Assembly: GCA_019637115.1 (NCBI GenBank)
Contig: JAHBWH010000066.1
Span: 1 to 38,844, forward strand
Direction: 5' to 3'
Length of the DNA: 38,844 bases
From: Myxococcales bacterium
GTDB lineage: Bacteria > Myxococcota_A > Polyangia > Polyangiales > Houyiibacteriaceae
The notes under the pieces were generated by a model. The model ran no database searches. It saw only the letters and a list, made by a program, of their open reading frames with translations, and had not been told where the DNA came from. The number at the start of each line of letters is the position of its first letter. Position 1 is the first letter of the stretch. The position numbers and the translations under genes are program-made. Of this stretch, positions 26,737 to 37,202 are shown one piece after another.

Positions 26737-27892
26737 TCAGCTCGGCGCCTCCAATCGGAGCGTCACGCGCATCTCGCCGCTTCGCACCTCGAACTCCGGC
26801 TCGGGATACCCAGCCTCGGTGAGCTCTCGAATCATGTGCACGACCCCGACGCCCATATCCTCGCGGTAGCCGAGGCGATGGAGCATGTTCGCGAGGTAAG
26901 GGTTGCGCCGCTGCGAGACCCCACCAAGGCGGATGCTGTCGACGGTCATGTGATTCAAGAGGCCACCCGGGTTGATGACCTCGACGCGGTCGTCGAAGAC
27001 GAAGATCCGCACTTGAGAGGGGACGGCGTAGTCTCGGTGGGCGAGCGCGTTCGCAACGACCTCGCGCCAGACGTCGGGAGGTATGCGACGGTCGACCCGC
27101 TTCAGCCCGGAGCTCGACGACGAGCTCGCTGGCGTGTGAAGCTCGAGAAACGCGACGGCCTGCTCGAGCTGGTGCACCACCGTCCCTCGGAGCTCCTTGC
27201 GGTCCACGAGGTCTCTGCTCATCGCGACGCCCCGAAAACGCACCGCCGTGACGTAGGCATCGATCACGAACCGTTGCGGCTCGGCCGAGAGCATCAAGAC
27301 CCCTGCGAGCGTCGGGGTCCCGTCATCCGTGATTGCCCGCAGGGCGCGCAGGAGCGTTTCGTCTTGCACCCTCGCGCGCGAGGGAAGCCGCGCGACCAGC
27401 TCCGCGATGAGCACGGGGTCCAAGTCGGCACGGTTCGCTCGCGGCGCTGGCTGCTCATCGAAGTGTGCCGTGCTCCCATGGAGTAGGTGCTTGAGCTCCT
27501 CGGACGTCGCCTCACGAGACATCGCTCCGTCGCGTACGAAGAACCTCGAATCCCCCCGGAACGGACGCTCGGGGAGGAACCCGGGGACCGCCACGTGCAG
27601 AACGGGCCCCTCGTCGAAGTCCAACACATCCAGGTCGACGCGGAGGGCGGGGTTGCAGGAATCCCGTGCGATCTGGGCGACGGTCCGTTGGGCAACGTCG
27701 ATGTCGTCGAGCCCCGTCACCGTTCCGTCGTTCTCGACGCCGAGGAAGAGATCTCCCCCCCCCGCTGTTCGCGAAGGCGACCAGCGCTTTGGCGATCGCG
27801 CGGCGCTCTGGCAGGCCCGGCCGCGCCGACTTCAGCTCCGTGCGGCCGTCCTCTCCTCGCGCGAACCGGACTCGCAGATCCTCCAAGGTCAC
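26737..27892 (-). pseudogene. AlbA_2 (Schlafen-like) + HATPase_c_4 protein, frame broken at a G9 tract (cassette member 1)
   Basis: Starting at a GTG (27892), the first 45 codons give the AlbA_2 opening (EDGRTELKSARP, then ALVAFANSGGG). At a run of nine G (27755-27763) the frame is lost. With eight G it would continue as DLFLGVENDGTVTGLDDID, the expected family sequence, for a 384-aa protein. Downstream, the intact frame (26737 to about 27754) holds the rest of AlbA_2, a linker with a Ser run, and a GHKL-type ATPase module (VVANALAHRD as N-box, EVINPGGL, RNPYLANML, GVGVVHM). Such proteins are regulators, helicase-related proteins or defence effectors. Genuine pseudogene, phase-variable gene and sequencing error are all possible. 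Confidence 0.75.
27755..27763. repeat. Homopolymer run of nine C (G9 on the coding strand) inside the AlbA_2 domain
   Basis: Nine consecutive C on the plus strand encode the GGG of the conserved ANSGGG motif. Eight would keep the AlbA_2 frame open. Runs of this length are prone to slippage in cells and to length errors in sequencing. Confidence 0.95.
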
Positions 27893-27985
27893 CTGGTGAA
27901 TCTAGCACGAACGCGCGAGAGCCCCGTCGGGCGTCGCGCTCAGTGCAGCGAACCGGAAGTTCGTGACCAGGTGCAAAGAGGCGCC

Positions 27986-28182
27986 CGTCCAGCGAGCGGA
28001 GCGAGCGTCGGCTCGTGGGAGGGGGCCCCGCGGGGCTGCGTCGCACCGCGCTGCCGCGCGGTTGCGACTGTCTCGCGAATTCGTGCAGCTTCGCGGACTA
28101 CGTCCGCTTCGCCTCGCACGATTCCGCTTGGATCCATGCCCCATGGGGGAGGGGCAGGCGACAGCCCCTCATAGGAAGCTCA
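27986..28182 (-). repeat. Structured repeat element, long copy (inverted relative to the copy at 36.1 kb)
   Basis: Copy B. Read on the minus strand it begins TGAGCTTCCT (including the stop of the transaminase gene), passes the CCCCATGGGG palindrome, then a two-arm hairpin (TCGTGC with GCACGA at 28081-28121, inner GCGGAC-TAC-GTCCGC), then a 12-bp stem with one bulge (28040-28068) and the CCCCGCGGGG end with CCCACGAGCC. Copy C at 36098-36292 matches along its length; copy A at 3001-3073 matches only the ends. Confidence 0.75.
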
Positions 28183-29274
28183 GTAGAGCCGGTCGATGCC
28201 CATCTCCGCGAGGACCTCGCGGAGCGCGACGATGAAGCGGGACATGTCGTCCGGCGTGATGGCGCCCATGTTGGCGAGCCGGAAGGTGTCCTTCTTCGCG
28301 CCCTTCCCCGGGTAGATCGTGAAGCCTCGCGCGAAGAGCAGGTCGTGCATCCGGTCGTACGAGTAGGCCGGGTGCGTGGGCTCGAGGTAGGCCGTGAGGA
28401 TGCGCGAGAGCTGCGCCTCCGGGAGCAGGCGCTCGAAGCCGAGCTCGCGCATGCCGCCGTCGAGGACCTCGAAGCAGGCGGCGTAGCGGCGGTGGCGCGC
28501 CTCGACGCCGCCCTCCGCCTCGAGCTCGCGGATGGCTTGCTCGAGCGCGTAGACGAGCTGCACGGGCGGCGTGAAGCGCATCTGGTGGTTCTTGAGGAAG
28601 AAGCGATATTGGTCCGCGAGGCTCAGGTAGAGCGAGCGCCCCGGGACGCGCTGCATCGTCTCGATGCGCGCGCGCCGGCAGAGGACGAACGAGAGGCCCG
28701 CCATGCCCTGGATGCATTTGTTGGAGCTCGACACGAGGAAGTCCGCGCCCAACGCGTCCATGGAGATGGGGATGCCCGCGTAGCTCGACATCGCGTCGAC
28801 GATCATCTCGACGCCCGCGTCCTTGCAGAGCGCGCCGACCGCCTCGACCGGGTTGAGCATGCCCGTCGTCGTCTCGTGGTGGACGATCGCGAGGTGGGTG
28901 AAGCCGCCCTCCGCGAGCTTCGCCTCGACTCGCGCGAGGTCGACCGGCTCGCCCACGCCAAGGTCGAGGACCTCGTGCGCCATGCGGTACGCGGCCGCCA
29001 TCTCGGCGATCCGGGTGCCGTACGCGCCGTTGTCGACGACGAGGAGCTTGCCGTCCTCGGGCACCGCCGAGGCCACGGCGGCCTCGACCGCCGCGGTGCC
29101 CGAGCCGCCGAAGAGCACGGCGACGCAGTCGTCGCCGACGAGCTTCGCGAGGCCCTCGGCGACGCGGCCCATCGTGTCGCCGAAGCTCTGCTCACGGGGG
29201 CAGATGTCTTCGCAGACGAGCGCGTCCTTGACGGTCTGGGTGGTGGTCGCGGGGCCCGGGTTGAGCAGGATCAT
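28180..29274 (-). CDS. phnW: 2-aminoethylphosphonate-pyruvate transaminase
   Basis: 364 aa, class V PLP aminotransferase. N-terminus ILLNPGPATTTQTVK, cofactor-binding GGSGTAAVEA, Asp160 in MIVDAMSSYAG and the Schiff-base Lys186 in SSSNKCIQGMAG, as in PhnW. In a biosynthetic setting it runs from phosphonoacetaldehyde to 2-aminoethylphosphonate (2-AEP), the reverse of its catabolic direction. ATG at 29274 shares a base with the stop of the nucleotidyltransferase gene (TGATG), so the two are coupled. Last gene of the minus-strand phosphonate operon; its stop codon lies inside a structured repeat. Confidence 0.93.
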   Translation of the reverse strand: MILLNPGPATTTQTVKDALVCEDICPREQSFGDTMGRVAEGLAKLVGDDCVAVLFGGSGTAAVEAAVASAVPEDGKLLVVDNGAYGTRIAEMAAAYRMAHEVLDLGVGEPVDLARVEAKLAEGGFTHLAIVHHETTTGMLNPVEAVGALCKDAGVEMIVDAMSSYAGIPISMDALGADFLVSSSNKCIQGMAGLSFVLCRRARIETMQRVPGRSLYLSLADQYRFFLKNHQMRFTPPVQLVYALEQAIRELEAEGGVEARHRRYAACFEVLDGGMRELGFERLLPEAQLSRILTAYLEPTHPAYSYDRMHDLLFARGFTIYPGKGAKKDTFRLANMGAITPDDMSRFIVALREVLAEMGIDRLY

Positions 29275-30131
29275 CAGGCGGACTCCATGCGGAGGATCTG
29301 CGGGTAGAGCTCGCGCCGCAGGAGCGCGTACTCCTCGGGGCTGTCGACCTCGAGGAAAGGGAGCTCCTCCCCCGAGAAGGTGAGCGCGCGGACGCGGCCG
29401 TAGCGCATGAGGCGCTCGGTGAGCTCCTCGTGCTCGGTCGCGCGCTTGGCAGGCCCGAAGCCCTTGAAGGCGAGCGACGTGGGGTCGGCGTCCGGGTCGC
29501 CGAGGAGCCACGCCATCGTGCGGCGCACGAGCCCGTGATCCTCGGGCGCGAGCTTCACGATGCCCGTCGCCTCGCCGAGGCAGGGTTCGTGCATGACGAG
29601 CTCGGGCGTCAGGCCCTTGCCCATGAAGCGCGGCGCCTCGCGCGGTCCGAAGACGAGCACCTCCTCGGTGGAGTTCTCGAAGCGGTCGCAGACGAGCGTC
29701 GTCGTCACCGCCGGCGCCTCGAGCATGCGCCGCAGCACGTCGCGGTGGTAGACGATGTCGGCGTCCATCAACAGCGTCTGCCGCGTGCCGTCGAGGACGC
29801 CGTGCTCCGAACGCGAAGCGAACTGGAAGCTGTGCAGGCTGCCCGAGGTCTGGATCTCGGGCGTCGGGTTCACGACGAGCTTCACCCACGGCGCCCAGCG
29901 CTCGACCTCGGCGGCGATCATGTCGCGGCGGTAGCCGACGACCACGACGACGCGCTCGACGCCGAGCTCGCGGAGGAGCTCGATCTGCCGGCGCAGGAAG
30001 CTCGTCTCTTCCTGGTCCGCGGCGCCGCGCGGGCCGATCGGCAAGATGGCCTTGGGCCGCTCGTCGGTCTCCTCGGAGAGCCGGGAGCCGCGGCCCGCGG
30101 CCAAGATGACCGCCTCGTACTCGTGCTTCAT
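29274..30131 (-). CDS. Nucleotidyltransferase, probable CTP:2-AEP cytidylyltransferase (PntC-like)
   Basis: 285 aa. A complete sugar-phosphate-type nucleotidyltransferase: VILAAGRGSRL with the downstream RPKAILPIG lysine motif, VVVGYRRDMI, and LLMDADIVYH for the metal-binding Asp. In phosphonate clusters such enzymes activate 2-AEP with CTP to CMP-2-AEP; that substrate is inferred from the neighbours. ATG at 30131, 63 bp after the decarboxylase gene; overlaps the transaminase start. An NTP-binding role is secure, the exact substrate less so: phosphocholine or phosphoethanolamine cytidylyltransferases look similar. Confidence 0.82.
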   Translation of the reverse strand: MKHEYEAVILAAGRGSRLSEETDERPKAILPIGPRGAADQEETSFLRRQIELLRELGVERVVVVVGYRRDMIAAEVERWAPWVKLVVNPTPEIQTSGSLHSFQFASRSEHGVLDGTRQTLLMDADIVYHRDVLRRMLEAPAVTTTLVCDRFENSTEEVLVFGPREAPRFMGKGLTPELVMHEPCLGEATGIVKLAPEDHGLVRRTMAWLLGDPDADPTSLAFKGFGPAKRATEHEELTERLMRYGRVRALTFSGEELPFLEVDSPEEYALLRRELYPQILRMESA

Positions 30132-30194
30132 GGTGCTGCCTTCGACCTCGCTGCGCCGCCGGCTTCCGGCGGAGGTTGTTCGTGATGCGCGCGC

Positions 30195-31343
30195 TCAGGC
30201 CGTCTCGGCCAGCCAGTCGCGGAAGCGCGCGTAGGCGTCCCTCGGTGCCAGCTTCGGCCGGCCGAGCTCGGCCTTGCCGCCCGTCCGCACGACCACGCGG
30301 AGGAAGGTCGGCCCCTCCTCGCTCAGGTGCGCCTCGAGCGTCTGCTTCAGCTCGTCCGCCGTCGACACGGTGTCGGCGCGGCGGTAGCCGCTCGCGAGCG
30401 CGATCGCCGCGAAGTCGACCGAGGGCGACGCCGTCGGCTGGCCGCCGGTCGAGTCGTGCGCCGCGTTGTCGATGACGACGTGGTGCAGGTTCGCAGACTT
30501 CGCCGCGCCGATGGTCGCGAGCGTGCCGAGCTTCATCAGGAGCGCGCCGTCGCCGTCGAGCACGACGACCTTGCCCGGCCGGGTGCGCGCGACGCCGAGG
30601 CCGAAGCCCGCCGCGCAGCCCATCGAGCCGACCATGTAGAAGCGGTTGGCCTTCGAGTGGTCCTGATCGTCGAGCTCGTAGAGCTCGCGCGAGAGCTTGC
30701 CGGTCGTCGCGACCACGGCCGGTCGGTCGGCCTCGGCGTTGAGCAGGGGGGCGATGACCTGCAGCGCGTCGTACCGATCCATCGCGGGGACGTGCCGGCG
30801 ACGCGGGGGCAGCGCGAAAGCGCTCGTCTCGGCCTCGAAGGTGATCGGCGCCGCCACGGAGCCGCCCGTGAGCCGGCCCTTGCGGAAGACCCAGCCCGCC
30901 GGCACCTGGCGCGCGAGCACGTCGTCGAGCTCGCGCCCGAAGCTCGTCTCGTCGAAGACGTAGCCCTCGATCCCGCAGAGCGTGATCAGCTCGTCGGTGA
31001 TGACGCCCATGCGCTCGTGCTGCGGCTCGTCCGGTTTGCCGGGCTCGCCGCGGTGCGAGACGAGGAGCACCACGGGCATCTGGTAGATGTAGAGCATCGA
31101 GGTGATGGGGTTCACCGCGTTGCCGAGCCCGGAGTTCTGCATGAGCGCGAAGGCCGGGCGGCCACCCGCCACGAGGCCCGCCGCGATCGCGACCGCCTCG
31201 CCCTCGCTCGAGGCGGGGACGTAGTCGAGGCCCGGGTCCGAGCCCATGTAGTTCACGACCGGGGTGAAATACGAGCAGGGCACGCCGCTGCCGCTGCGGA
31301 TACGGCGCTCCTTGAGCTCGCTGCCGAAGGCGTCGATGTCCAT
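30195..31343 (-). CDS. Phosphonopyruvate decarboxylase
   Basis: 382 aa, TPP-dependent. An N-terminal pyrimidine-binding half (SSEGEAVAIAAGLVAGGRP with the catalytic Glu, LMQNSGLGNAVNP) is followed by the diphosphate-binding half (VLDGDGALLMKLG near 262-273, ending with NAAHDSTGGQPT near 293-304). This enzyme pulls the unfavourable PEP mutase reaction forward by decarboxylating phosphonopyruvate to phosphonoacetaldehyde. Its ATG comes 1 bp after the stop of the PEP mutase gene, so the pair is coupled. The short length (a single chain of about 380 aa) is normal for Ppd. Confidence 0.94.
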   Translation of the reverse strand: MDIDAFGSELKERRIRSGSGVPCSYFTPVVNYMGSDPGLDYVPASSEGEAVAIAAGLVAGGRPAFALMQNSGLGNAVNPITSMLYIYQMPVVLLVSHRGEPGKPDEPQHERMGVITDELITLCGIEGYVFDETSFGRELDDVLARQVPAGWVFRKGRLTGGSVAAPITFEAETSAFALPPRRRHVPAMDRYDALQVIAPLLNAEADRPAVVATTGKLSRELYELDDQDHSKANRFYMVGSMGCAAGFGLGVARTRPGKVVVLDGDGALLMKLGTLATIGAAKSANLHHVVIDNAAHDSTGGQPTASPSVDFAAIALASGYRRADTVSTADELKQTLEAHLSEEGPTFLRVVVRTGGKAELGRPKLAPRDAYARFRDWLAETA

Positions 31344-31344
31344 C

Positions 31345-32952
31345 TCAGCTCACCTGGTCCGAGGCGAGGAGGTCGGCCTGCTCGTCGAGATCGCGCCAAT
31401 GCCCGAAGGTGTGCACGACGTTGACCTTCTCGCCGGCCGCGATGAGCCGGTTGAGCAGGTCGACGAGGCTCGCCGAACGCAGCGCCTCGGGCTCGTCCTG
31501 GGCCATCGCCTCGAGCGCGGCGACGACCTTCGCGGCTGCGTCGCCCTGGAGCGCGAGCAGGCCGATCCACTCGCCGCTCGCGGCGTCGGGCTCGATCGCG
31601 CCGATCGCCTGGAGCGTGCACTCGCCGCCGAGCGGCGTGCGCGTGCCCTCGGTCTTCACGAGGTCGCGTTTGTCGTCGACGCGCGGGCGGATGCGGAAGC
31701 CGGCGTCGGCCGCGAGCGTGACGCCCTGCGACTGCGCGAGCAGGTTCTGCAGGATGAAGGGGTCGTAGATGACGTCGCCGTAGGCGATCACGACCTCGCC
31801 CTTGAGGAAGTCGCGCGCCTGGTAGAGGGAGTAGAGCTCGCCGGTCGTGCCGTAGTCGTCGTTGTCGAAGTAGCTCAGGCCCGCGAGGTTCACGGCGTCC
31901 TTCTTGTAGCCGCGCACCACGCCGATGTTCTTGATGCCCTGCTTGTTGAAGGCCTCCGTGTGCCACGTGAGCACCGGCTTGCCCTTGAGGTTGAGCATGC
32001 ACTTGGGCTTGTCCTCGACGAGCTTGCCGAAGTTGCCCTTCGTCGCGGCGAGGACGAGCGCGCGATACGGCGCCTGGGTCGGCTCGGGGAGGTAGCGCGC
32101 CTCCAGCGAGGCGAACTCCTTCATGCCCTGCAGGCGGAAGATCTCCGAGACCGGCGCGATGTCGTTCTCGACCGACATCAGGTCGTGCGTCTCGCGCAGC
32201 TTCTTGAGCGTGTCCTGGAGCGCCGTCACGACGGTGCGGATGCACTGGTTGGCGAAGATGAAGTTCGTGATACCGGCCTCGACGAACTTCGACATCGGCT
32301 CGGTCGGGTACTTCGTCGGGACGATGATGACGGGCGCCGCGCCACTCCAATGCTGCATGAACGAGAGGATCTCGCTGCTGTCCTTGCGGGCGCTGTGCAC
32401 GAGGATCACGTCCGCGCCGCTCTCGGCGTAGGCGGTCGCGCGCAGGAGCGCCTCGTTGAGGCCCCAGCCGGCGATGAAGGCCTCGGTTCGCGCGACGACC
32501 ATGAAGTCCTCGTCGGCCTGGGTGTCCTTGGCCGCGCGGAGCTTGCCGCAGAACTCGTCGACCTCGGCGAGCGCCTGCTTCTCGCCCGAGATGAAGCTGT
32601 TCGTCTTCGGGAAGAGCTTGTCCTCGAGGCAGACGCCCGCGATGCCGCGCTGCTCGAGCTTCTTCACGAGACGGATGACGTTGTTGAAGTTGCCGTAGCC
32701 CGTGTCGCCGTCGAGGAGGATGGGCAGGTCGGTGGCGTCGCTCATGAACTCGAGCACGTCGAGGACCTGCGTCCAGCTCGCCTCGTTGTTGTCGCGGACA
32801 CCGAGCGCCGCCGAGATGGAGAGGCCGCTGCCCCAGATGCCCTCGAAGCCTGCTTCCTTGACGAGCTTCGCGCTCAGGCCGTTGTGGGCCTCCATGAGCA
32901 CCGCCGTGTCGTTGCCCATCAGCATCTGGCGGAGTTTGGTCGTGCGTTTCAT
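31345..32952 (-). CDS. pepM: Phosphoenolpyruvate mutase with fused nucleotidyltransferase-like domain
   Basis: 535 aa. Residues 1-290 are PEP mutase, which makes the C-P bond by turning PEP into phosphonopyruvate. The defining motif EDKLFPKTNSF (110-120) is complete, and the metal site LLDGDTGYGNFNN (79-91) is in place. Residues about 297-535 form a nucleotidyltransferase-like domain (YRALVLAATKGNFGK, DKPKCMLNLKGKP, AYGDVIYDPF) whose glycine-rich loop departs from the LAAGxGxR consensus, so its activity is uncertain. ATG at 32952. First gene of the minus-strand operon pepM-ppd-nucleotidyltransferase-phnW, divergent from the LysE-like gene. Confidence 0.94.
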   Translation of the reverse strand: MKRTTKLRQMLMGNDTAVLMEAHNGLSAKLVKEAGFEGIWGSGLSISAALGVRDNNEASWTQVLDVLEFMSDATDLPILLDGDTGYGNFNNVIRLVKKLEQRGIAGVCLEDKLFPKTNSFISGEKQALAEVDEFCGKLRAAKDTQADEDFMVVARTEAFIAGWGLNEALLRATAYAESGADVILVHSARKDSSEILSFMQHWSGAAPVIIVPTKYPTEPMSKFVEAGITNFIFANQCIRTVVTALQDTLKKLRETHDLMSVENDIAPVSEIFRLQGMKEFASLEARYLPEPTQAPYRALVLAATKGNFGKLVEDKPKCMLNLKGKPVLTWHTEAFNKQGIKNIGVVRGYKKDAVNLAGLSYFDNDDYGTTGELYSLYQARDFLKGEVVIAYGDVIYDPFILQNLLAQSQGVTLAADAGFRIRPRVDDKRDLVKTEGTRTPLGGECTLQAIGAIEPDAASGEWIGLLALQGDAAAKVVAALEAMAQDEPEALRSASLVDLLNRLIAAGEKVNVVHTFGHWRDLDEQADLLASDQVS

Positions 32953-33007
32953 GGCTGGTCTCTCTTCGTACGGAGTCGATGGCCCCCCTCGGGAGGCGGA
33001 GCTTCAG

Positions 33008-33050
33008 GTGTCGGCGCGGGCGCCCTCGGGCCGGCGGAGCCGCCCGACAC
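33008..33050 (-). promoter_or_regulatory. Hairpin in the pepM leader region
   Basis: GTGTCGG (33008-33014) pairs with CCGACAC (33044-33050), enclosing GC-rich sequence that can fold further. It lies 56-98 bp upstream of pepM in the divergent control region. Regulatory role is speculative. Confidence 0.3.
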
Positions 33051-33132
33051 GGGGGCGCAGTCCTACCCTTTTCTCGGGGCGCGTGCTAGGCCGCTCCGGC
33101 TGCGGCTCGGGTCGTCGTGGCGACCTCGGGTG

Positions 33133-33780
33133 ATGCTGACCGCTGCGTTCTTCGGGTTCCTGTTGGGGTTCTTTGGGTCCATTCCCGTGGCGGGGCCGCT
33201 CGCGGTGTTGGTGCTCTCGCGCGGGCTCGACGGGCGCTTTCGCCCGGCCCTGCTCATCGCGGTGGGCGGCGCGGTCGGCGAGGCGGGCTACGCGGCCCTC
33301 GCCTTCTGGGGTTTCGGCGCGCTCCTCGCGGACCACTCGTGGATCGAACCCGCCTCGCGAGCGGCCGGCGCCGTCATCCTCGCGCCCCTCGGCTACCTGC
33401 TGATGCGCACGCCCAAGGCCGCGCCGCTCGTCGCCGAGGACACGCCGCCGCCGCCGCCGCGGCGGAGCGAGCTCGCGAGCTTCCTGCTCGGCTTCACGGT
33501 CACCGCCGCGAACCCCACGCTCATCGCTACGTGGACGGCGGCCGTCACAGCGCTCTTCGCGTCGGGCCTCGTCGACTTCCAGCCCTCGAGCGCCGCGTTC
33601 TTCGCGCTCGGCACGGCGCTCGGGATCGCGGCGTGGTCGACGCTCTTGCTGGGCCTCATCTGGAAGCTGCAGAAGCGCTTCCGCCCCGAGCTGCTCGCGG
33701 CCACCAAGCGCGTCACCGGCGCGCTGGTCGTCGTGCTCGCGGTCTTCTTCGCGTGGCGCTTCGTCGCCTACTTCATCTGA
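33133..33780 (+). CDS. LysE/RhtB-type membrane exporter
   Basis: 215 aa with about six hydrophobic helices: 1-25 (FLLGFFGSIPVAGPLAVLVLS), 36-60, 70-88, 110-130, 145-165 and 190-213. The first-helix SIPVAGPLAVLVL and the mid-protein NPTLIATWTAAVTALF correspond to the conserved proline-containing segments of LysE-family amino-acid exporters. ATG at 33133 with only a weak upstream GGGTG. Divergent from the phosphonate operon and 81 bp before the phosphonoacetate hydrolase gene, so it may move an amino-phosphonate, or simply be a neighbour. Confidence 0.68.
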   Translation: MLTAAFFGFLLGFFGSIPVAGPLAVLVLSRGLDGRFRPALLIAVGGAVGEAGYAALAFWGFGALLADHSWIEPASRAAGAVILAPLGYLLMRTPKAAPLVAEDTPPPPPRRSELASFLLGFTVTAANPTLIATWTAAVTALFASGLVDFQPSSAAFFALGTALGIAAWSTLLLGLIWKLQKRFRPELLAATKRVTGALVVVLAVFFAWRFVAYFI

Positions 33781-33861
33781 GACTCGGACCATGCGCGCGC
33801 GCACGAAGTCACCCGCCGACGTCCGCACGCGCGCGGTCCCCCTGACGCTCTTCGAGGTGCC

Positions 33862-35049
33862 ATGAGCTTCGTCCTGCACGGCCGCCACTACCGCTCGCCG
33901 CGCGGCCCGACGGCCGTCGTCTGCGTCGACGGGCTCGACCCCGCGTACCTCGACGCGGCGCTCGCGCGCGCCGACGTGCCCACGCTCGCGACGCTGGCCG
34001 CCGAGGGGCGGCTCGGGGTGGCGCGCGGGGCGATGCCCTCGTTCACCAACCCAAACAACGCCTCGATCGTGACGGGCGCCCCACCCGCCGTGCATGGTAT
34101 CTCCGGCAACCACTTCCTCGACGCGGAGGGGCGCGAGGCGCCGATGAGCCGGCGCGAGCACCTCTGGGGCGACACGATCCTGGATGCGCTCGCCGATCAA
34201 GGGGTCCGCGTGCTCGCGATCACCGCAAAGAAGAAGCTCACCGAGCTGCTCGCGCCACGCGGCGGCCACGCCTTCTCGATCGAGGCGCCCTCGGAACAGG
34301 GCCTGAGCCTGCTGCGCCGAGCCCGGCCCGACCTCGATCCGAGCCAGGTCGCGATCTACTCGGACGAGGCGTCGCTCGCGGTGCTCGACGCGGGCCTCTG
34401 CGCGCTCTCGTGCGGCGAGGCCGAGCTCGTCTACCTCTCGACGACCGACTACGTCCAACACAAGCACGGCCCCGAGAGCCCCGAGGCGCTCGCTTTCGTC
34501 GAGGCCCTCGACCGACGGCTGGCCGCGCTCGAGGCCATGGGCGCCCGCTACGTGTGGACGGCGGATCACGGCATGAACGACAAGACCCAGGCGGACGGCT
34601 CGCCGAAGGTCGTCTACCTCGAGGCGGCGCTCGCCGCGGCGTTCGGAGACACCGCGGCTTGTCGTGTCCTGCTGCCCATCACCGACCCCTACGTCGTGCA
34701 CCACGGCGCCCTCGGCTCGGCGGCCACGGTCTACTGCCCGCCGGAGACCCGCGACGCCGCACGCGCCGCGCTCCGCGCGCTCGAGGGCGTCGAGGACGTG
34801 CTCACCCGCGACGAGGCCGCCGAGCGGCTCGCGCTTCCCTCCGCGCGGATCGGCGACCTCTTCGTCCTCGCCGACGCGCGCACCGTGCTCGGGCGAGCGC
34901 CCGAGAAGCACGATCTCGCGGAGGTGTCGGTGGGGCTTCGTTCGCATGGGGGGCTTCACGAGACACGGGTGCCCTGGCTCTCGGATCGGGCCATCGACCC
35001 GAGCCTCGAGCTGCGGAACGCGGACGCTTTCTGGTGGGCGCTCAGCTGA
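33862..35049 (+). CDS. phnA: Phosphonoacetate hydrolase-like enzyme (alkaline phosphatase superfamily)
   Basis: 395 aa. All elements of the two-zinc alkaline-phosphatase-like site of PhnA are visible: Asp23 in VVCVDGLDP, the nucleophile Thr62 in PSFTNPNNASIVTG, Asp196 and His200 in STTDYVQHKHGP, Asp235-His236 in TADHGMNDK, and a late His (362 or 366) in SHGGLHE. PhnA splits phosphonoacetate to acetate and phosphate. ATG at 33862 with GAGGTGCC before it. It is downstream of the LysE-like gene on the same strand and convergent with the CDP-alcohol phosphotransferase. A degradative enzyme inside a biosynthetic locus suggests clean-up of oxidised phosphonoacetaldehyde. Confidence 0.88.
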   Translation: MSFVLHGRHYRSPRGPTAVVCVDGLDPAYLDAALARADVPTLATLAAEGRLGVARGAMPSFTNPNNASIVTGAPPAVHGISGNHFLDAEGREAPMSRREHLWGDTILDALADQGVRVLAITAKKKLTELLAPRGGHAFSIEAPSEQGLSLLRRARPDLDPSQVAIYSDEASLAVLDAGLCALSCGEAELVYLSTTDYVQHKHGPESPEALAFVEALDRRLAALEAMGARYVWTADHGMNDKTQADGSPKVVYLEAALAAAFGDTAACRVLLPITDPYVVHHGALGSAATVYCPPETRDAARAALRALEGVEDVLTRDEAAERLALPSARIGDLFVLADARTVLGRAPEKHDLAEVSVGLRSHGGLHETRVPWLSDRAIDPSLELRNADAFWWALS

Positions 35050-35098
35050 GCGTTCACCCGACCCCCCCTTGATCGGGGCGCGGCCGGGCTCGGCAACG

Positions 35099-35926
35099 TC
35101 AGGCCAGCGCGGGCTCCTCGTCCAGCTCGCCCTTCGCGTGGCGGACGACGAGGAAGAGGTAGACGTTCGCGGGCACGAGCGCGACGAAGACGTAGACCCA
35201 GAGCGCGTAGGGCACGAAGGGCGTGAGCAGACCGGCGATCACGAAGCCGACGTTGTGGTGGGTCGGCCCGACCCACTGCACGCGCCGGAAGAAGCGGTAG
35301 CTCGCGCCCTGCTCGCCCGCGCTCGCGTTGTCGATCGTCTTCGAGTAGTTGCGCAGGAACCAGTAGAGGAAGTGGTCGAAGGGGCCGCGGAGCTCGGCGC
35401 GGTAGGCGTCGATGTGCTTGTCGAGCGAGTCGGGCTTGAGCTTCTGTTTGATGCCGTCGAGCGTCGTCGAGCCCCAGATCACCGAGAGGCCAGCGGCGGA
35501 CATGAGCACGAAGAGGGCCGCGGGGTGGAGCGTGTAGTCGAAGAAGGTCGGGTCGTAGAACCAGAGGTGGAGCCACACGCCGACGTGGACGGCGATGAAG
35601 GAGACCATGTCGCCGAGGCCATCGAGGATGCGGCCGCGCCAGGTGCCGCCACCGCGGAGCCGGGCGAGGTCGCCGTCGGCGCAGTCGACCACCATCATGG
35701 TCAGGTAGAGCAGGGCGCCGTAGAGCGGGCCGTAGCCCGGGAAGGCGAAGAGCACGCCGCCGGTGACGCCGAAGACGGTCGCGATCGCGGTGATGTGGTT
35801 GGGCTGGAGCCGCGTCGGGGCGGCGGCCTTGGCGATCCGGCGAGCGATCGGGCGACAGAAGGCCGAGTCGAAGGCCTCGTCGAGGACCATCTCGCGCTCG
35901 CTGGACGGTGTGGTGGGCTGGGACAT
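35099..35926 (-). CDS. CDP-alcohol phosphatidyltransferase, candidate phosphonolipid synthase
   Basis: 275 aa integral membrane enzyme. The family signature is exact: D81-x2-D84-G85-x2-A88-R89-x8-G98-x3-D102-x3-D106 (DCADGDLARL to LDGLGD). Hydrophobic helices surround it at about 42-62, 68-84, 108-125, 140-158 and 235-262. Such enzymes displace CMP from a CDP- or CMP-activated head group. Placed beside CTP-type nucleotidyltransferase and 2-AEP genes, it could transfer the aminoethylphosphonyl group from CMP-2-AEP to diacylglycerol, making a phosphonolipid; the substrate is inferred. The ATG at 35926 is chosen for its GAGGT site and the family start; the longer frame to 36196 runs into the repeat element. 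Confidence 0.88.
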   Translation of the reverse strand: MSQPTTPSSEREMVLDEAFDSAFCRPIARRIAKAAAPTRLQPNHITAIATVFGVTGGVLFAFPGYGPLYGALLYLTMMVVDCADGDLARLRGGGTWRGRILDGLGDMVSFIAVHVGVWLHLWFYDPTFFDYTLHPAALFVLMSAAGLSVIWGSTTLDGIKQKLKPDSLDKHIDAYRAELRGPFDHFLYWFLRNYSKTIDNASAGEQGASYRFFRRVQWVGPTHHNVGFVIAGLLTPFVPYALWVYVFVALVPANVYLFLVVRHAKGELDEEPALA

Positions 35927-36097
35927 CGGACGCGACCTCGGCAGGCGGGGTGCTGACACAGGAGCGTGAAGCAAGCCACGTGCCCGTGACAGACCCGTGA
36001 GGATACGATGGACAGCACTCGGAAATTCCGGACGACCGGTCAGATGGTGCGAAGTGTACGACACACCAGCGCGTAGCCAAGGTGGCGGCGCTGTGAG

Positions 36098-36292
36098 GTT
36101 ACTCAGCTTCCTCGGACTGTCGCCAGCCTCCCCCATGGGGATGGTTCGAAGCGGAATCGTGCGAGGCGAAGCGGACGGAGTCCCGCGAAGCTGCACGAAT
36201 CCGCGAGACAGTCGCAGCCGCGCGACGCGCGATGCATGAAGCGCCGCGGGGGCCCCTCACGAGGCTCCGCTCCTTACGCTCGCTCTAGGGCG
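36098..36292 (+). repeat. Structured repeat element, long copy
   Basis: Copy C. It begins ACTCAGCTTCCT, contains GTCGCCAGCCTCCCCCATGG, the hairpin TCGTGC (36157-36162) with GCACGA (36193-36198) and inner GCGGAC with GTCCCGC, and the end CCGCGGGGGCCCCT with ACGAGG and GCTCGCT. It matches copy B at 27986-28182 in opposite orientation. The second stem seen in copy B is partly eroded here. Confidence 0.75.
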
Positions 36293-36368
36293 CATTGCGA
36301 GCCGGCCGAGCTTCCTTTCGGATCGCCCCAAGGCACGAAACTGCCGCCCCCGCGCGTGCGCTGCAAGA

Positions 36369-36397
36369 TTCACCGCCGCGACGGGCCCAGGTATAAA
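36369..36397 (+). promoter_or_regulatory. Promoter giving a leaderless mRNA for the TPR gene
   Basis: TTCACC (36369-36374), 17-bp spacer, TATAAA (36392-36397), then 7 bp to the ATG at 36405. Transcription would start at the A of the start codon. There is no ribosome-binding site, consistent with leaderless translation. Confidence 0.6.
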
Positions 36398-36404
36398 GCT
36401 CGCG

Positions 36405-37202
36405 ATGAGACGCCTCGTGCAATGGATCATCCTCGCGTGCCTCTCGACCGCGCTCGTGCCGGCGGTCGGGCACACCCAACCGGAGGCGACGCCAGATGAG
36501 CGGGCCACGCTCGACCACGAGGCGCGGCAGCTCTTCAACGCCGGGGAGACGGCGTTCGCGAGCGGTCGATACGAGAGCGCGCTCGACTACTTCACGCGAG
36601 CCTACGAGCTCAGCGGACGAGCCGTGCTCCTCTACAACGTGGGCCTCGCGGCCGAGCTCGCGCGACAGGACGAGCGCGCGCTCGAAGCCTACCGGGGGTT
36701 CCTCGAGCTGGTCCCAGCCTCCGAGCAGCGCACGCGCGTGCAGACCCGGGTGCGCGAGCTCGAGGCGCGCGTCGCCTCGAGGACCGAGGCCCAGGCGGCG
36801 GACGAGGCTTCCTCCGGCGTGGGCATGGGAGACGCCTCCGAGGATGCCGCCTCCGACCCGCCAGCTCCCGCGACGCGCAGCGAGGGGCGAAAGCCAACGC
36901 TGGGTTGGGCGCTCTTCGCTACGGGCGCCGTGGTCACGGCGACCGGCGCGGTCCTCGGCGCTCTGGCGCTCGCGGACATCTCCGCGGTCGAGAACGCGCC
37001 CCAAGGCAGCTCGTGGTCGGACGTCCGCGGCGCCTCCACGCGCGCCGAGCCGCTCAGCGTCACGAGCCTCGTCGCGCTCGGCGTCGGCGTGGTCGGCATG
37101 GGGGTCGGCCTCGTGCTCGCGCTGACCGCGCGGAGGGGGAACCACGATTTCGCGCTCCGAGTGGGTCCGGGCAGCCTCGCGCTGACGGGGAGCTTCCGAT
37201 GA
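36405..37202 (+). CDS. Secreted or membrane TPR protein
   Basis: 265 aa. A signal peptide (1-25, ending VGHTQ) is followed by about two TPR units (residues 38-105; FNAGETAFASGRYESALDYF and YNVGLAAELARQDERALEAY), a charged, acidic linker (110-155) and two hydrophobic helices (about 165-190 and 222-243) with a short C-terminal tail. Similar small TPR-plus-membrane proteins are common in myxobacteria. A promoter with TATAAA positions transcription at the ATG itself. The stop overlaps the next start (ATGA at 37199-37202), so the downstream lipoprotein is in the same operon. Confidence 0.78.
   Translation: MRRLVQWIILACLSTALVPAVGHTQPEATPDERATLDHEARQLFNAGETAFASGRYESALDYFTRAYELSGRAVLLYNVGLAAELARQDERALEAYRGFLELVPASEQRTRVQTRVRELEARVASRTEAQAADEASSGVGMGDASEDAASDPPAPATRSEGRKPTLGWALFATGAVVTATGAVLGALALADISAVENAPQGSSWSDVRGASTRAEPLSVTSLVALGVGVVGMGVGLVLALTARRGNHDFALRVGPGSLALTGSFR

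What the first reader, a model, noticed from the sequence alone, without database searches (positions are those of the whole stretch)
28180..35926. Phosphonate locus pointing to a 2-AEP phosphonolipid
PEP mutase, phosphonopyruvate decarboxylase and PhnW give 2-AEP; a canonical nucleotidyltransferase can make CMP-2-AEP; a CDP-alcohol phosphotransferase with an exact catalytic motif could attach it to diacylglycerol. Nucleotidyl activation of phosphonates is known (PntC-type enzymes). The complete set with a nearby lipid transferase predicts a membrane phosphonolipid in this organism.
Basis: partly seen in the sequence, partly recalled or inferred. Interest (0 to 1): 0.7.

Follow-up and report, generated by a model that had tools for sequence, protein, structure and literature searches.

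The report
Bacterial gene set for a phosphonolipid
This myxobacterium-like genome carries a gene set that should build the carbon-phosphorus compound 2-aminoethylphosphonate, activate it as CMP-2-AEP and attach it to a membrane lipid; such clusters had been predicted before, but here the set is a new arrangement, and comparison with about 115 related loci ties the lipid-type transferase to the pathway.

Summary
At 28180-32952 (minus strand) a tight four-gene operon encodes PEP mutase (fused to a nucleotidyltransferase-like domain), phosphonopyruvate decarboxylase, a stand-alone nucleotidyltransferase and PhnW; at 35099-35926 lies a CDP-alcohol phosphotransferase (CAP) with the exact catalytic motif. 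The stand-alone enzyme looks like a PntC (CMP-AEP synthase): best structural match Tde-PntC, Z 30.3, 1.9 A, with the three mutationally tested residues present. Two opposite-strand genes (LysE-type transporter, phosphonoacetate hydrolase) lie between, so the CAP is not in the operon. Its link to phosphonates is nevertheless supported: 25 of 36 true PEP-mutase loci in the class and 29 of 80 in named genomes carry a CAP nearby, from several CAP lineages, and 27 of those 29 also carry a stand-alone PntC-like enzyme. One relative has NTase-CAP-LysE-PepM-Ppd-PhnW in a single overlapping operon. Product: most likely an AEP phosphonolipid; the acceptor (diacylglycerol or ceramide) is not shown. The cluster type was predicted before (Yu 2013; Nostoc 2018), so this is a variant, not a new kind. 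Side observation: none of 80 PepM-fused nucleotidyltransferase domains has the signature arginine, while 42 of 45 stand-alone ones do.

The parts
28180..29274 (-). PhnW, 2-aminoethylphosphonate:pyruvate aminotransferase
   Evidence: TIGR03301 418.2 bits over cut-off 360.8; start ATG overlaps the stop of the upstream gene
29274..30131 (-). stand-alone nucleotidyltransferase, PntC type (CTP:AEP cytidylyltransferase)
   Evidence: PF12804; profile best PDB hit Tde-PntC 6pd1 E 7e-37; AF2 pLDDT 91.7, 6pd2 Z 30.3 rmsd 1.9 over 243
30195..31343 (-). Ppd, phosphonopyruvate decarboxylase
   Evidence: TIGR03297 368.8 bits over cut-off 312.5
31345..32088 (-). C-terminal nucleotidyltransferase-like domain fused to PEP mutase; signature arginine missing
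   Evidence: PF12804 5.7e-8; best PDB hit of its family profile is LicC 1jyk 9.5e-25; 0 of 80 fused domains have GxGxR..PK
32089..32952 (-). PEP mutase domain (same gene as the fused domain, 31345-32952)
   Evidence: TIGR02320 355.8 bits over cut-off 319.55; motif EDKLFPKTNS
32953..33132 (.). 180-bp divergent intergenic region between pepM and the LysE-type gene
   Evidence: coordinates; promoter role inferred
33133..33780 (+). LysE-type translocator
   Evidence: PF01810 1.1e-21; the same kind of gene adjoins pepM in L217 and L195
33862..35049 (+). phosphonoacetate hydrolase-like (PhnA) enzyme
   Evidence: TIGR02335 394.4 bits, just under cut-off 407.55; PDB 3szy E 4.2e-93
35099..35926 (-). 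CDP-alcohol phosphotransferase (CAP), 275 aa
   Evidence: PF01066; exact motif; fold: AF2299 Z 18.0, PIP synthases about 16, cholinephosphotransferase 14.6

Best explanation
The locus makes a 2-aminoethylphosphonate phosphonolipid by a Kennedy-type route. Steps with direct sequence support: PEP -> phosphonopyruvate (PepM) -> phosphonoacetaldehyde (Ppd) -> 2-AEP (PhnW) -> CMP-AEP (stand-alone PntC). Inferred last step: the CAP moves the AEP moiety from CMP-AEP to the hydroxyl of a lipid, most likely diacylglycerol, with release of CMP. Also inferred: the LysE-type protein moves the product or AEP across the membrane, and PhnA destroys phosphonoacetate formed when phosphonoacetaldehyde is oxidised by accident. 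The role of the PepM-fused nucleotidyltransferase-like domain is unknown.
For: Family models and motifs. PntC identity: profile and fold match to Tde-PntC well ahead of LicC, with Tde R15, K25, K153 and E196 matched by R17, K27, K172 and the second Glu of EHEE in the alignment; Rice 2019 (PMC6697681) found below 10% activity for Ala at R15, K25, K153. CAP linkage: 25 of 36 EDKxxxxxNS loci of the class have a CAP within 5.1 kb on the same strand as pepM; 29 of 80 in named genomes, in Burkholderiales, Nevskia, Bacteroidota, Myxococcota, Leptospiraceae and Verrucomicrobia; 27 of those 29 also have a stand-alone PntC-signature enzyme against 14 of 51 without CAP. The linked CAPs are not one clade (AU test p 1.9e-53), so the pairing arose more than once. 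L217 has NTase-CAP-LysE-PepM-Ppd-PhnW in one overlapping operon and its CAP is the nearest row to the window's. Lipid: CAPs of the sister loci best match CEPT1/CHPT1 (7.5e-10), Bacteroidota CAPs match CHPT1, PAP2 follows the CAP in Leptospiraceae, a LPG_synthase_TM gene lies between CAP and NTase in Burkholderia. The other two CAPs of the genome fall with PgsA-like and PssA-like groups.
Against: The window's CAP is not in the operon, and is not orthologous to the CHPT1-type CAPs of its sister loci; its best single-sequence PDB matches are PIP synthases, which use CDP-diacylglycerol. Its placement rests on long branches; a clade with type A CAPs is merely not rejected (p 0.44). One sister genome (G208) has no CAP beside its operon. 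No lipid data, no enzyme assay.
Confidence: 0.62

Rival explanations
1. The CAP is a CDP-diacylglycerol-dependent synthase (for example of a phosphatidylinositol-phosphate type) that happens to lie nearby, and CMP-AEP is used to decorate a glycan.
For: Closest single-sequence PDB matches are PIP synthases 6h53/6h5a and AF2299; best fold matches AF2299, DIPP synthase, PIP synthases; CAPs of similar sequence occur in many genomes of the class away from pepM; separate transcription unit.
Against: CAP next to pepM is recurrent and convergent across phyla; the nearest relative by tree sits inside a phosphonate operon; no glycosyltransferase, LicD or capsule gene was seen in 26737-37202 (and ORF list).
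Confidence: 0.2
2. Same pathway, but the acceptor is ceramide, giving a sphingophosphonolipid like that of Bdellovibrio stolpii.
For: A Bacteriovoracaceae locus has a FA_desaturase gene (Pfam PF00487; sphingolipid-desaturase-like only by my reading of its motifs), then LysE, then pepM; B. stolpii has a phosphonate-linked sphingolipid (PMC6148460). A third BioF/Kbl/SPT-family gene in the genome could be a serine palmitoyltransferase.
Against: That gene is below every SPT cut-off; no sphingolipid gene beside the window's locus; sister CAPs are of the DAG-using CHPT1 type.
Confidence: 0.12
3. The locus serves phosphonate breakdown (PhnW towards phosphonoacetaldehyde, then PhnA) or export of free AEP through the LysE protein, with no lipid product.
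For: A PhnA-like gene is present and PhnA is rare in the class, 5 of 289 genomes.
Against: PepM and Ppd are biosynthetic; no PhnY over cut-off in the genome (best 293 against 635.65 bits); a PntC would have no place in either role.
Confidence: 0.06

Closest known systems
Predicted phosphonolipid clusters of Nostoc and Burkholderia (PMC5987646 Fig. 7, adapted from Yu et al. 2013 PNAS, which was not readable here)
   Same: pepM, ppd, AEP transaminase, NTP transferase and CDP-alcohol phosphatidyltransferase together
   Different: No 2-oxoglutarate/Fe(II) oxidase and no HpnL-like gene seen in the window's locus; LysE-type and PhnA-type genes instead; a different CAP lineage placed outside the operon
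Treponema denticola PntC-AEPT (Tde1415, PDB 6PD1/6PD2, PMC6697681)
   Same: Fold and catalytic residues of the stand-alone nucleotidyltransferase; next to an AEP transaminase
   Different: Separate genes here, not fused to PhnW; the Glu104 position is Asp in the alignment; downstream partner is a CAP and not LicD or glycan genes
Choline/ethanolamine phosphotransferases CHPT1/CEPT1 (PDB 8ero, 8gyw)
   Same: Proposed reaction type; CAP fold; sister loci carry CAPs that match these best
   Different: The window's own CAP is shorter and nearer AF2299/DIPP/PIP synthases in sequence and fold

Membership tests
PEP mutase (PepM) | TIGR02320 over cut-off and EDKxxxxxNS motif | tested here: met
   355.8 bits against 319.55; EDKLFPKTNS
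PntC CTP:AEP cytidylyltransferase | GxG(T/S)R-x4-8-PK signature | tested here: met
   GRGSRLSEETDERPK in the stand-alone enzyme
PntC CTP:AEP cytidylyltransferase | Residues equal to Tde R15, K25, K153 | tested here: met
   R17, K27, K172 in the alignment
PntC CTP:AEP cytidylyltransferase | Closer to PntC than to LicC in profile and fold | tested here: met
   7e-37 against 4.9e-20; Z 30.3 (rmsd 1.9, 243 aligned) against 25.3 (rmsd 2.3, 227 aligned)
PntC CTP:AEP cytidylyltransferase | Prefers AEP over phosphocholine | not testable with these tools
   needs enzyme assay
Active PF12804 nucleotidyltransferase (PepM-fused domain) | GxG(T/S)R-x4-8-PK signature | tested here: not met
   Window domain reads LAATKGNFGKLVEDKPK; 0 of 80 fused domains match, 42 of 45 stand-alone ones do
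CDP-alcohol phosphotransferase | DxxDGxxAR-x8-GxxxDxxxD and PF01066 over cut-off | tested here: met
CHPT1/CEPT1-type head-group:diacylglycerol transferase | Closest solved relatives by sequence are CHPT1/CEPT1 | tested here: not met
   Window CAP's best PDB matches are PIP synthases and AF2299; the sister loci's CAPs do meet it
Phosphonolipid biosynthesis cluster (as predicted in PMC5987646) | AEP genes, cytidylyltransferase and CAP together | tested here: met
Phosphonolipid biosynthesis cluster (as predicted in PMC5987646) | C-P lipid in the organism | not testable with these tools
   needs 31P NMR or lipid mass spectrometry
Phosphonoacetate hydrolase PhnA | TIGR02335 over cut-off | tested here: inconclusive
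   394.4 against 407.55 bits; 3szy E 4.2e-93

The most novel reading that the evidence does not exclude
The nucleotidyltransferase-like domain fused to this large subfamily of PEP mutases is not an ordinary nucleotidyltransferase (regulatory, structural or with altered chemistry), and CMP activation of AEP is done only by the separate PntC whose presence goes with the CAP; this would change the reading that the fusion itself shows nucleotidyl activation. Alongside, CAPs of several lineages were recruited independently to make phosphonolipids in several phyla.
Probability: 0.35. Interest if true: 0.6.

Novelty: new variant of a known kind. Interest (0 to 1): 0.45.

Why it matters
Phosphonolipids are thought to resist ordinary phospholipases and have been shown in few bacteria; I found no paper that experimentally assigns the gene for the last step. 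A compact set with a PntC and a CAP, and cultured Burkholderia and Cupriavidus species with the same logic, make the step directly testable. The missing arginine in the PepM-fused domain raises a testable doubt about a published inference.

Tried and rejected
Window CAP as ortholog of the CHPT1-type CAP of the sister loci: rejected, no blastp match at 1e-8 and a different place in the tree. Catabolic locus: disfavoured for lack of PhnY. Type C loci (L092-L100) as support: set aside, since they lack EDKxxxxxNS. Sphingolipid desaturase in the own genome: PF08557 found nothing, but nothing rang in the controls either, so uninformative. Serine palmitoyltransferase: three BioF/Kbl-type genes, none over an SPT cut-off. 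Yu 2013 is not in the library.

Full report
OBSERVATION. On the minus strand four genes lie head to tail: pepM with a C-terminal nucleotidyltransferase-like domain (31345-32952), ppd (30195-31343), a stand-alone nucleotidyltransferase (29274-30131) and phnW (28180-29274). The pepM stop is next to the ppd start, and the nucleotidyltransferase stop overlaps the phnW start. Family models name each of them. At 35099-35926, same strand, is a 275-aa CAP with the exact motif, which occurs once in the window and not in 200 shuffled windows. Between pepM and CAP, on the plus strand, are a LysE-type translocator (33133-33780, PF01810 1.1e-21) and a phosphonoacetate hydrolase-like gene (33862-35049, PDB 3szy 4.2e-93).

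THE STAND-ALONE ENZYME LOOKS LIKE A PntC. A profile of it and its relatives has Treponema denticola PntC (6pd1) as the best solved relative, 7e-37, ahead of LicC at 4.9e-20. Its AlphaFold model (pLDDT 91.7) matches 6pd2 with Z 30.3, rmsd 1.9 over 243 residues, five units above LicC. In the alignment the three residues whose alanine mutants kept less than 10% activity (Arg15, Lys25, Lys153; PMC6697681) correspond to R17, K27 and K172, and Glu196 to a glutamate. Glu104 corresponds to an aspartate.

THE FUSED DOMAIN IS ODD. Rice 2019 (PMC6697681) counts fusions to PF12804 or PF01467 as signs of nucleotidyl activation. In the window the fused domain reads LAATKGNFGKLVEDKPK: the signature arginine is missing. 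In 80 fused domains from the nearest PEP mutases of named genomes, none has GxGxR..PK, against 42 of 45 stand-alone ones in the same loci. The lysine, the YGD aspartate and other residues remain. The family profile's best solved relative is LicC, 9.5e-25. So the fused domain may be inactive, regulatory or of altered chemistry, or still active without the arginine; this was not tested. The sample is limited to the nearest subfamily, and some genera are over-represented (Burkholderia, Paraburkholderia).

THE CAP BELONGS TO THE PATHWAY. The genome has three CAP genes; the other two fall with PgsA-like and PssA-like groups in the tree (these names rest on motif and family knowledge). One within 5.1 kb of pepM by chance is about 0.35%. 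In 289 genomes of the class, loci fetched show three layouts. Type A, about 20 loci: pepM-NT, ppd, phnW, CAP, PntC-like, one strand. Type B, the closest to the window (about 65% identity in PepM): pepM-NT, ppd, PntC-like, phnW, with CAP directly after phnW in three of five. Type C: PepM-like without EDKxxxxxNS, CAP convergent. Counting only EDKxxxxxNS loci, 25 of 36 have a CAP within 5.1 kb, all on the strand of pepM; several of the rest are cut by contig ends. In 80 named loci 29 have a CAP, across Burkholderiales, Nevskia, Bacteroidota, Myxococcota, Leptospiraceae and Verrucomicrobia, and 27 of the 29 also have a stand-alone PntC-signature enzyme, against 14 of 51 loci without CAP. A few loci are in both sets (for example L138 and L088), and related species are not independent. 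A tree rejects one clade for all linked CAPs (AU p 1.9e-53), so CAPs of different lineages were drawn to phosphonate genes more than once. The window's CAP lies on a long branch; its nearest row is the CAP of L217, where NTase, CAP, LysE, PepM, Ppd and PhnW follow each other in one operon, most junctions overlapping. A clade of window, L217, type A, type C, L160 and Leptospiraceae CAPs is not rejected (p 0.44).

ACCEPTOR. Sister (type B) CAPs have CEPT1 and CHPT1 as best solved relatives (7.5e-10), and Bacteroidota ones CHPT1: enzymes that move a head group from a CDP-alcohol to diacylglycerol. In Leptospiraceae a PAP2 phosphatase gene, which could make diacylglycerol, overlaps the CAP gene's end. 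In Burkholderia a LPG_synthase_TM gene lies between CAP and PntC; a Nostoc paper draws a similar set with hpnL as a phosphonolipid pathway (PMC5987646). Ceramide is the main alternative: a Bacteriovoracaceae locus has a fatty-acid desaturase, LysE and pepM in a row, and Bdellovibrio stolpii has a phosphonate sphingolipid (PMC6148460). The window's CAP itself folds most like AF2299 (Z 18.0), DIPP synthase (17.4) and PIP synthases (about 16), with cholinephosphotransferase at 14.6 (model pLDDT only 73); fold does not settle the substrates.

OTHER GENES. LysE-type genes adjoin pepM in L217 and L195 as well, so it probably belongs to the pathway; what it moves is unknown. PhnA-like genes are rare in the class (5 of 289 genomes, all five among those with a PepM-like gene, but four are relatives of one another), and no PhnY exceeds its cut-off; removal of stray phosphonoacetate is a guess.

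VERDICT. AEP synthesis: nearly certain by sequence (about 0.93). CMP-AEP: likely (about 0.85). Transfer to a lipid by the CAP: likely (about 0.62), diacylglycerol before ceramide. Known kind, new variant; the concept predates this report.

Noticed in passing
L092-L100 (type C loci): PepM-like proteins with EDNxFPKRCSF in place of EDKxxxxxNS, fused to a nucleotidyltransferase-like domain, beside a Ppd-like gene and (in four loci) a convergent CAP, with no PhnW found; possibly a different C-P compound.
   Followed up: partly
L161-L215, Paraburkholderia loci: 28 Paraburkholderia loci have PepM-NT, Ppd and PhnW but no CAP, and only 5 have a stand-alone nucleotidyltransferase within about 9 kb; their product is unclear.
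   Followed up: no
L195:2-607: Fatty-acid desaturase (sphingolipid-desaturase-like to my eye) directly before LysE and pepM in a Bacteriovoracaceae contig, a lead to sphingophosphonolipid genes in that group.
   Followed up: partly
L140:6836-8776 and L140:12610-14436: Two sulfatase-superfamily genes with membrane-like N-termini flank the phosphonate cluster of Chryseolinea; they might move AEP from the lipid to a glycan.
   Followed up: no
window 26737-27720: Protein with HATPase_c_4 domain (PF13749) on the minus strand beside the locus; no sign of a link.
   Followed up: no
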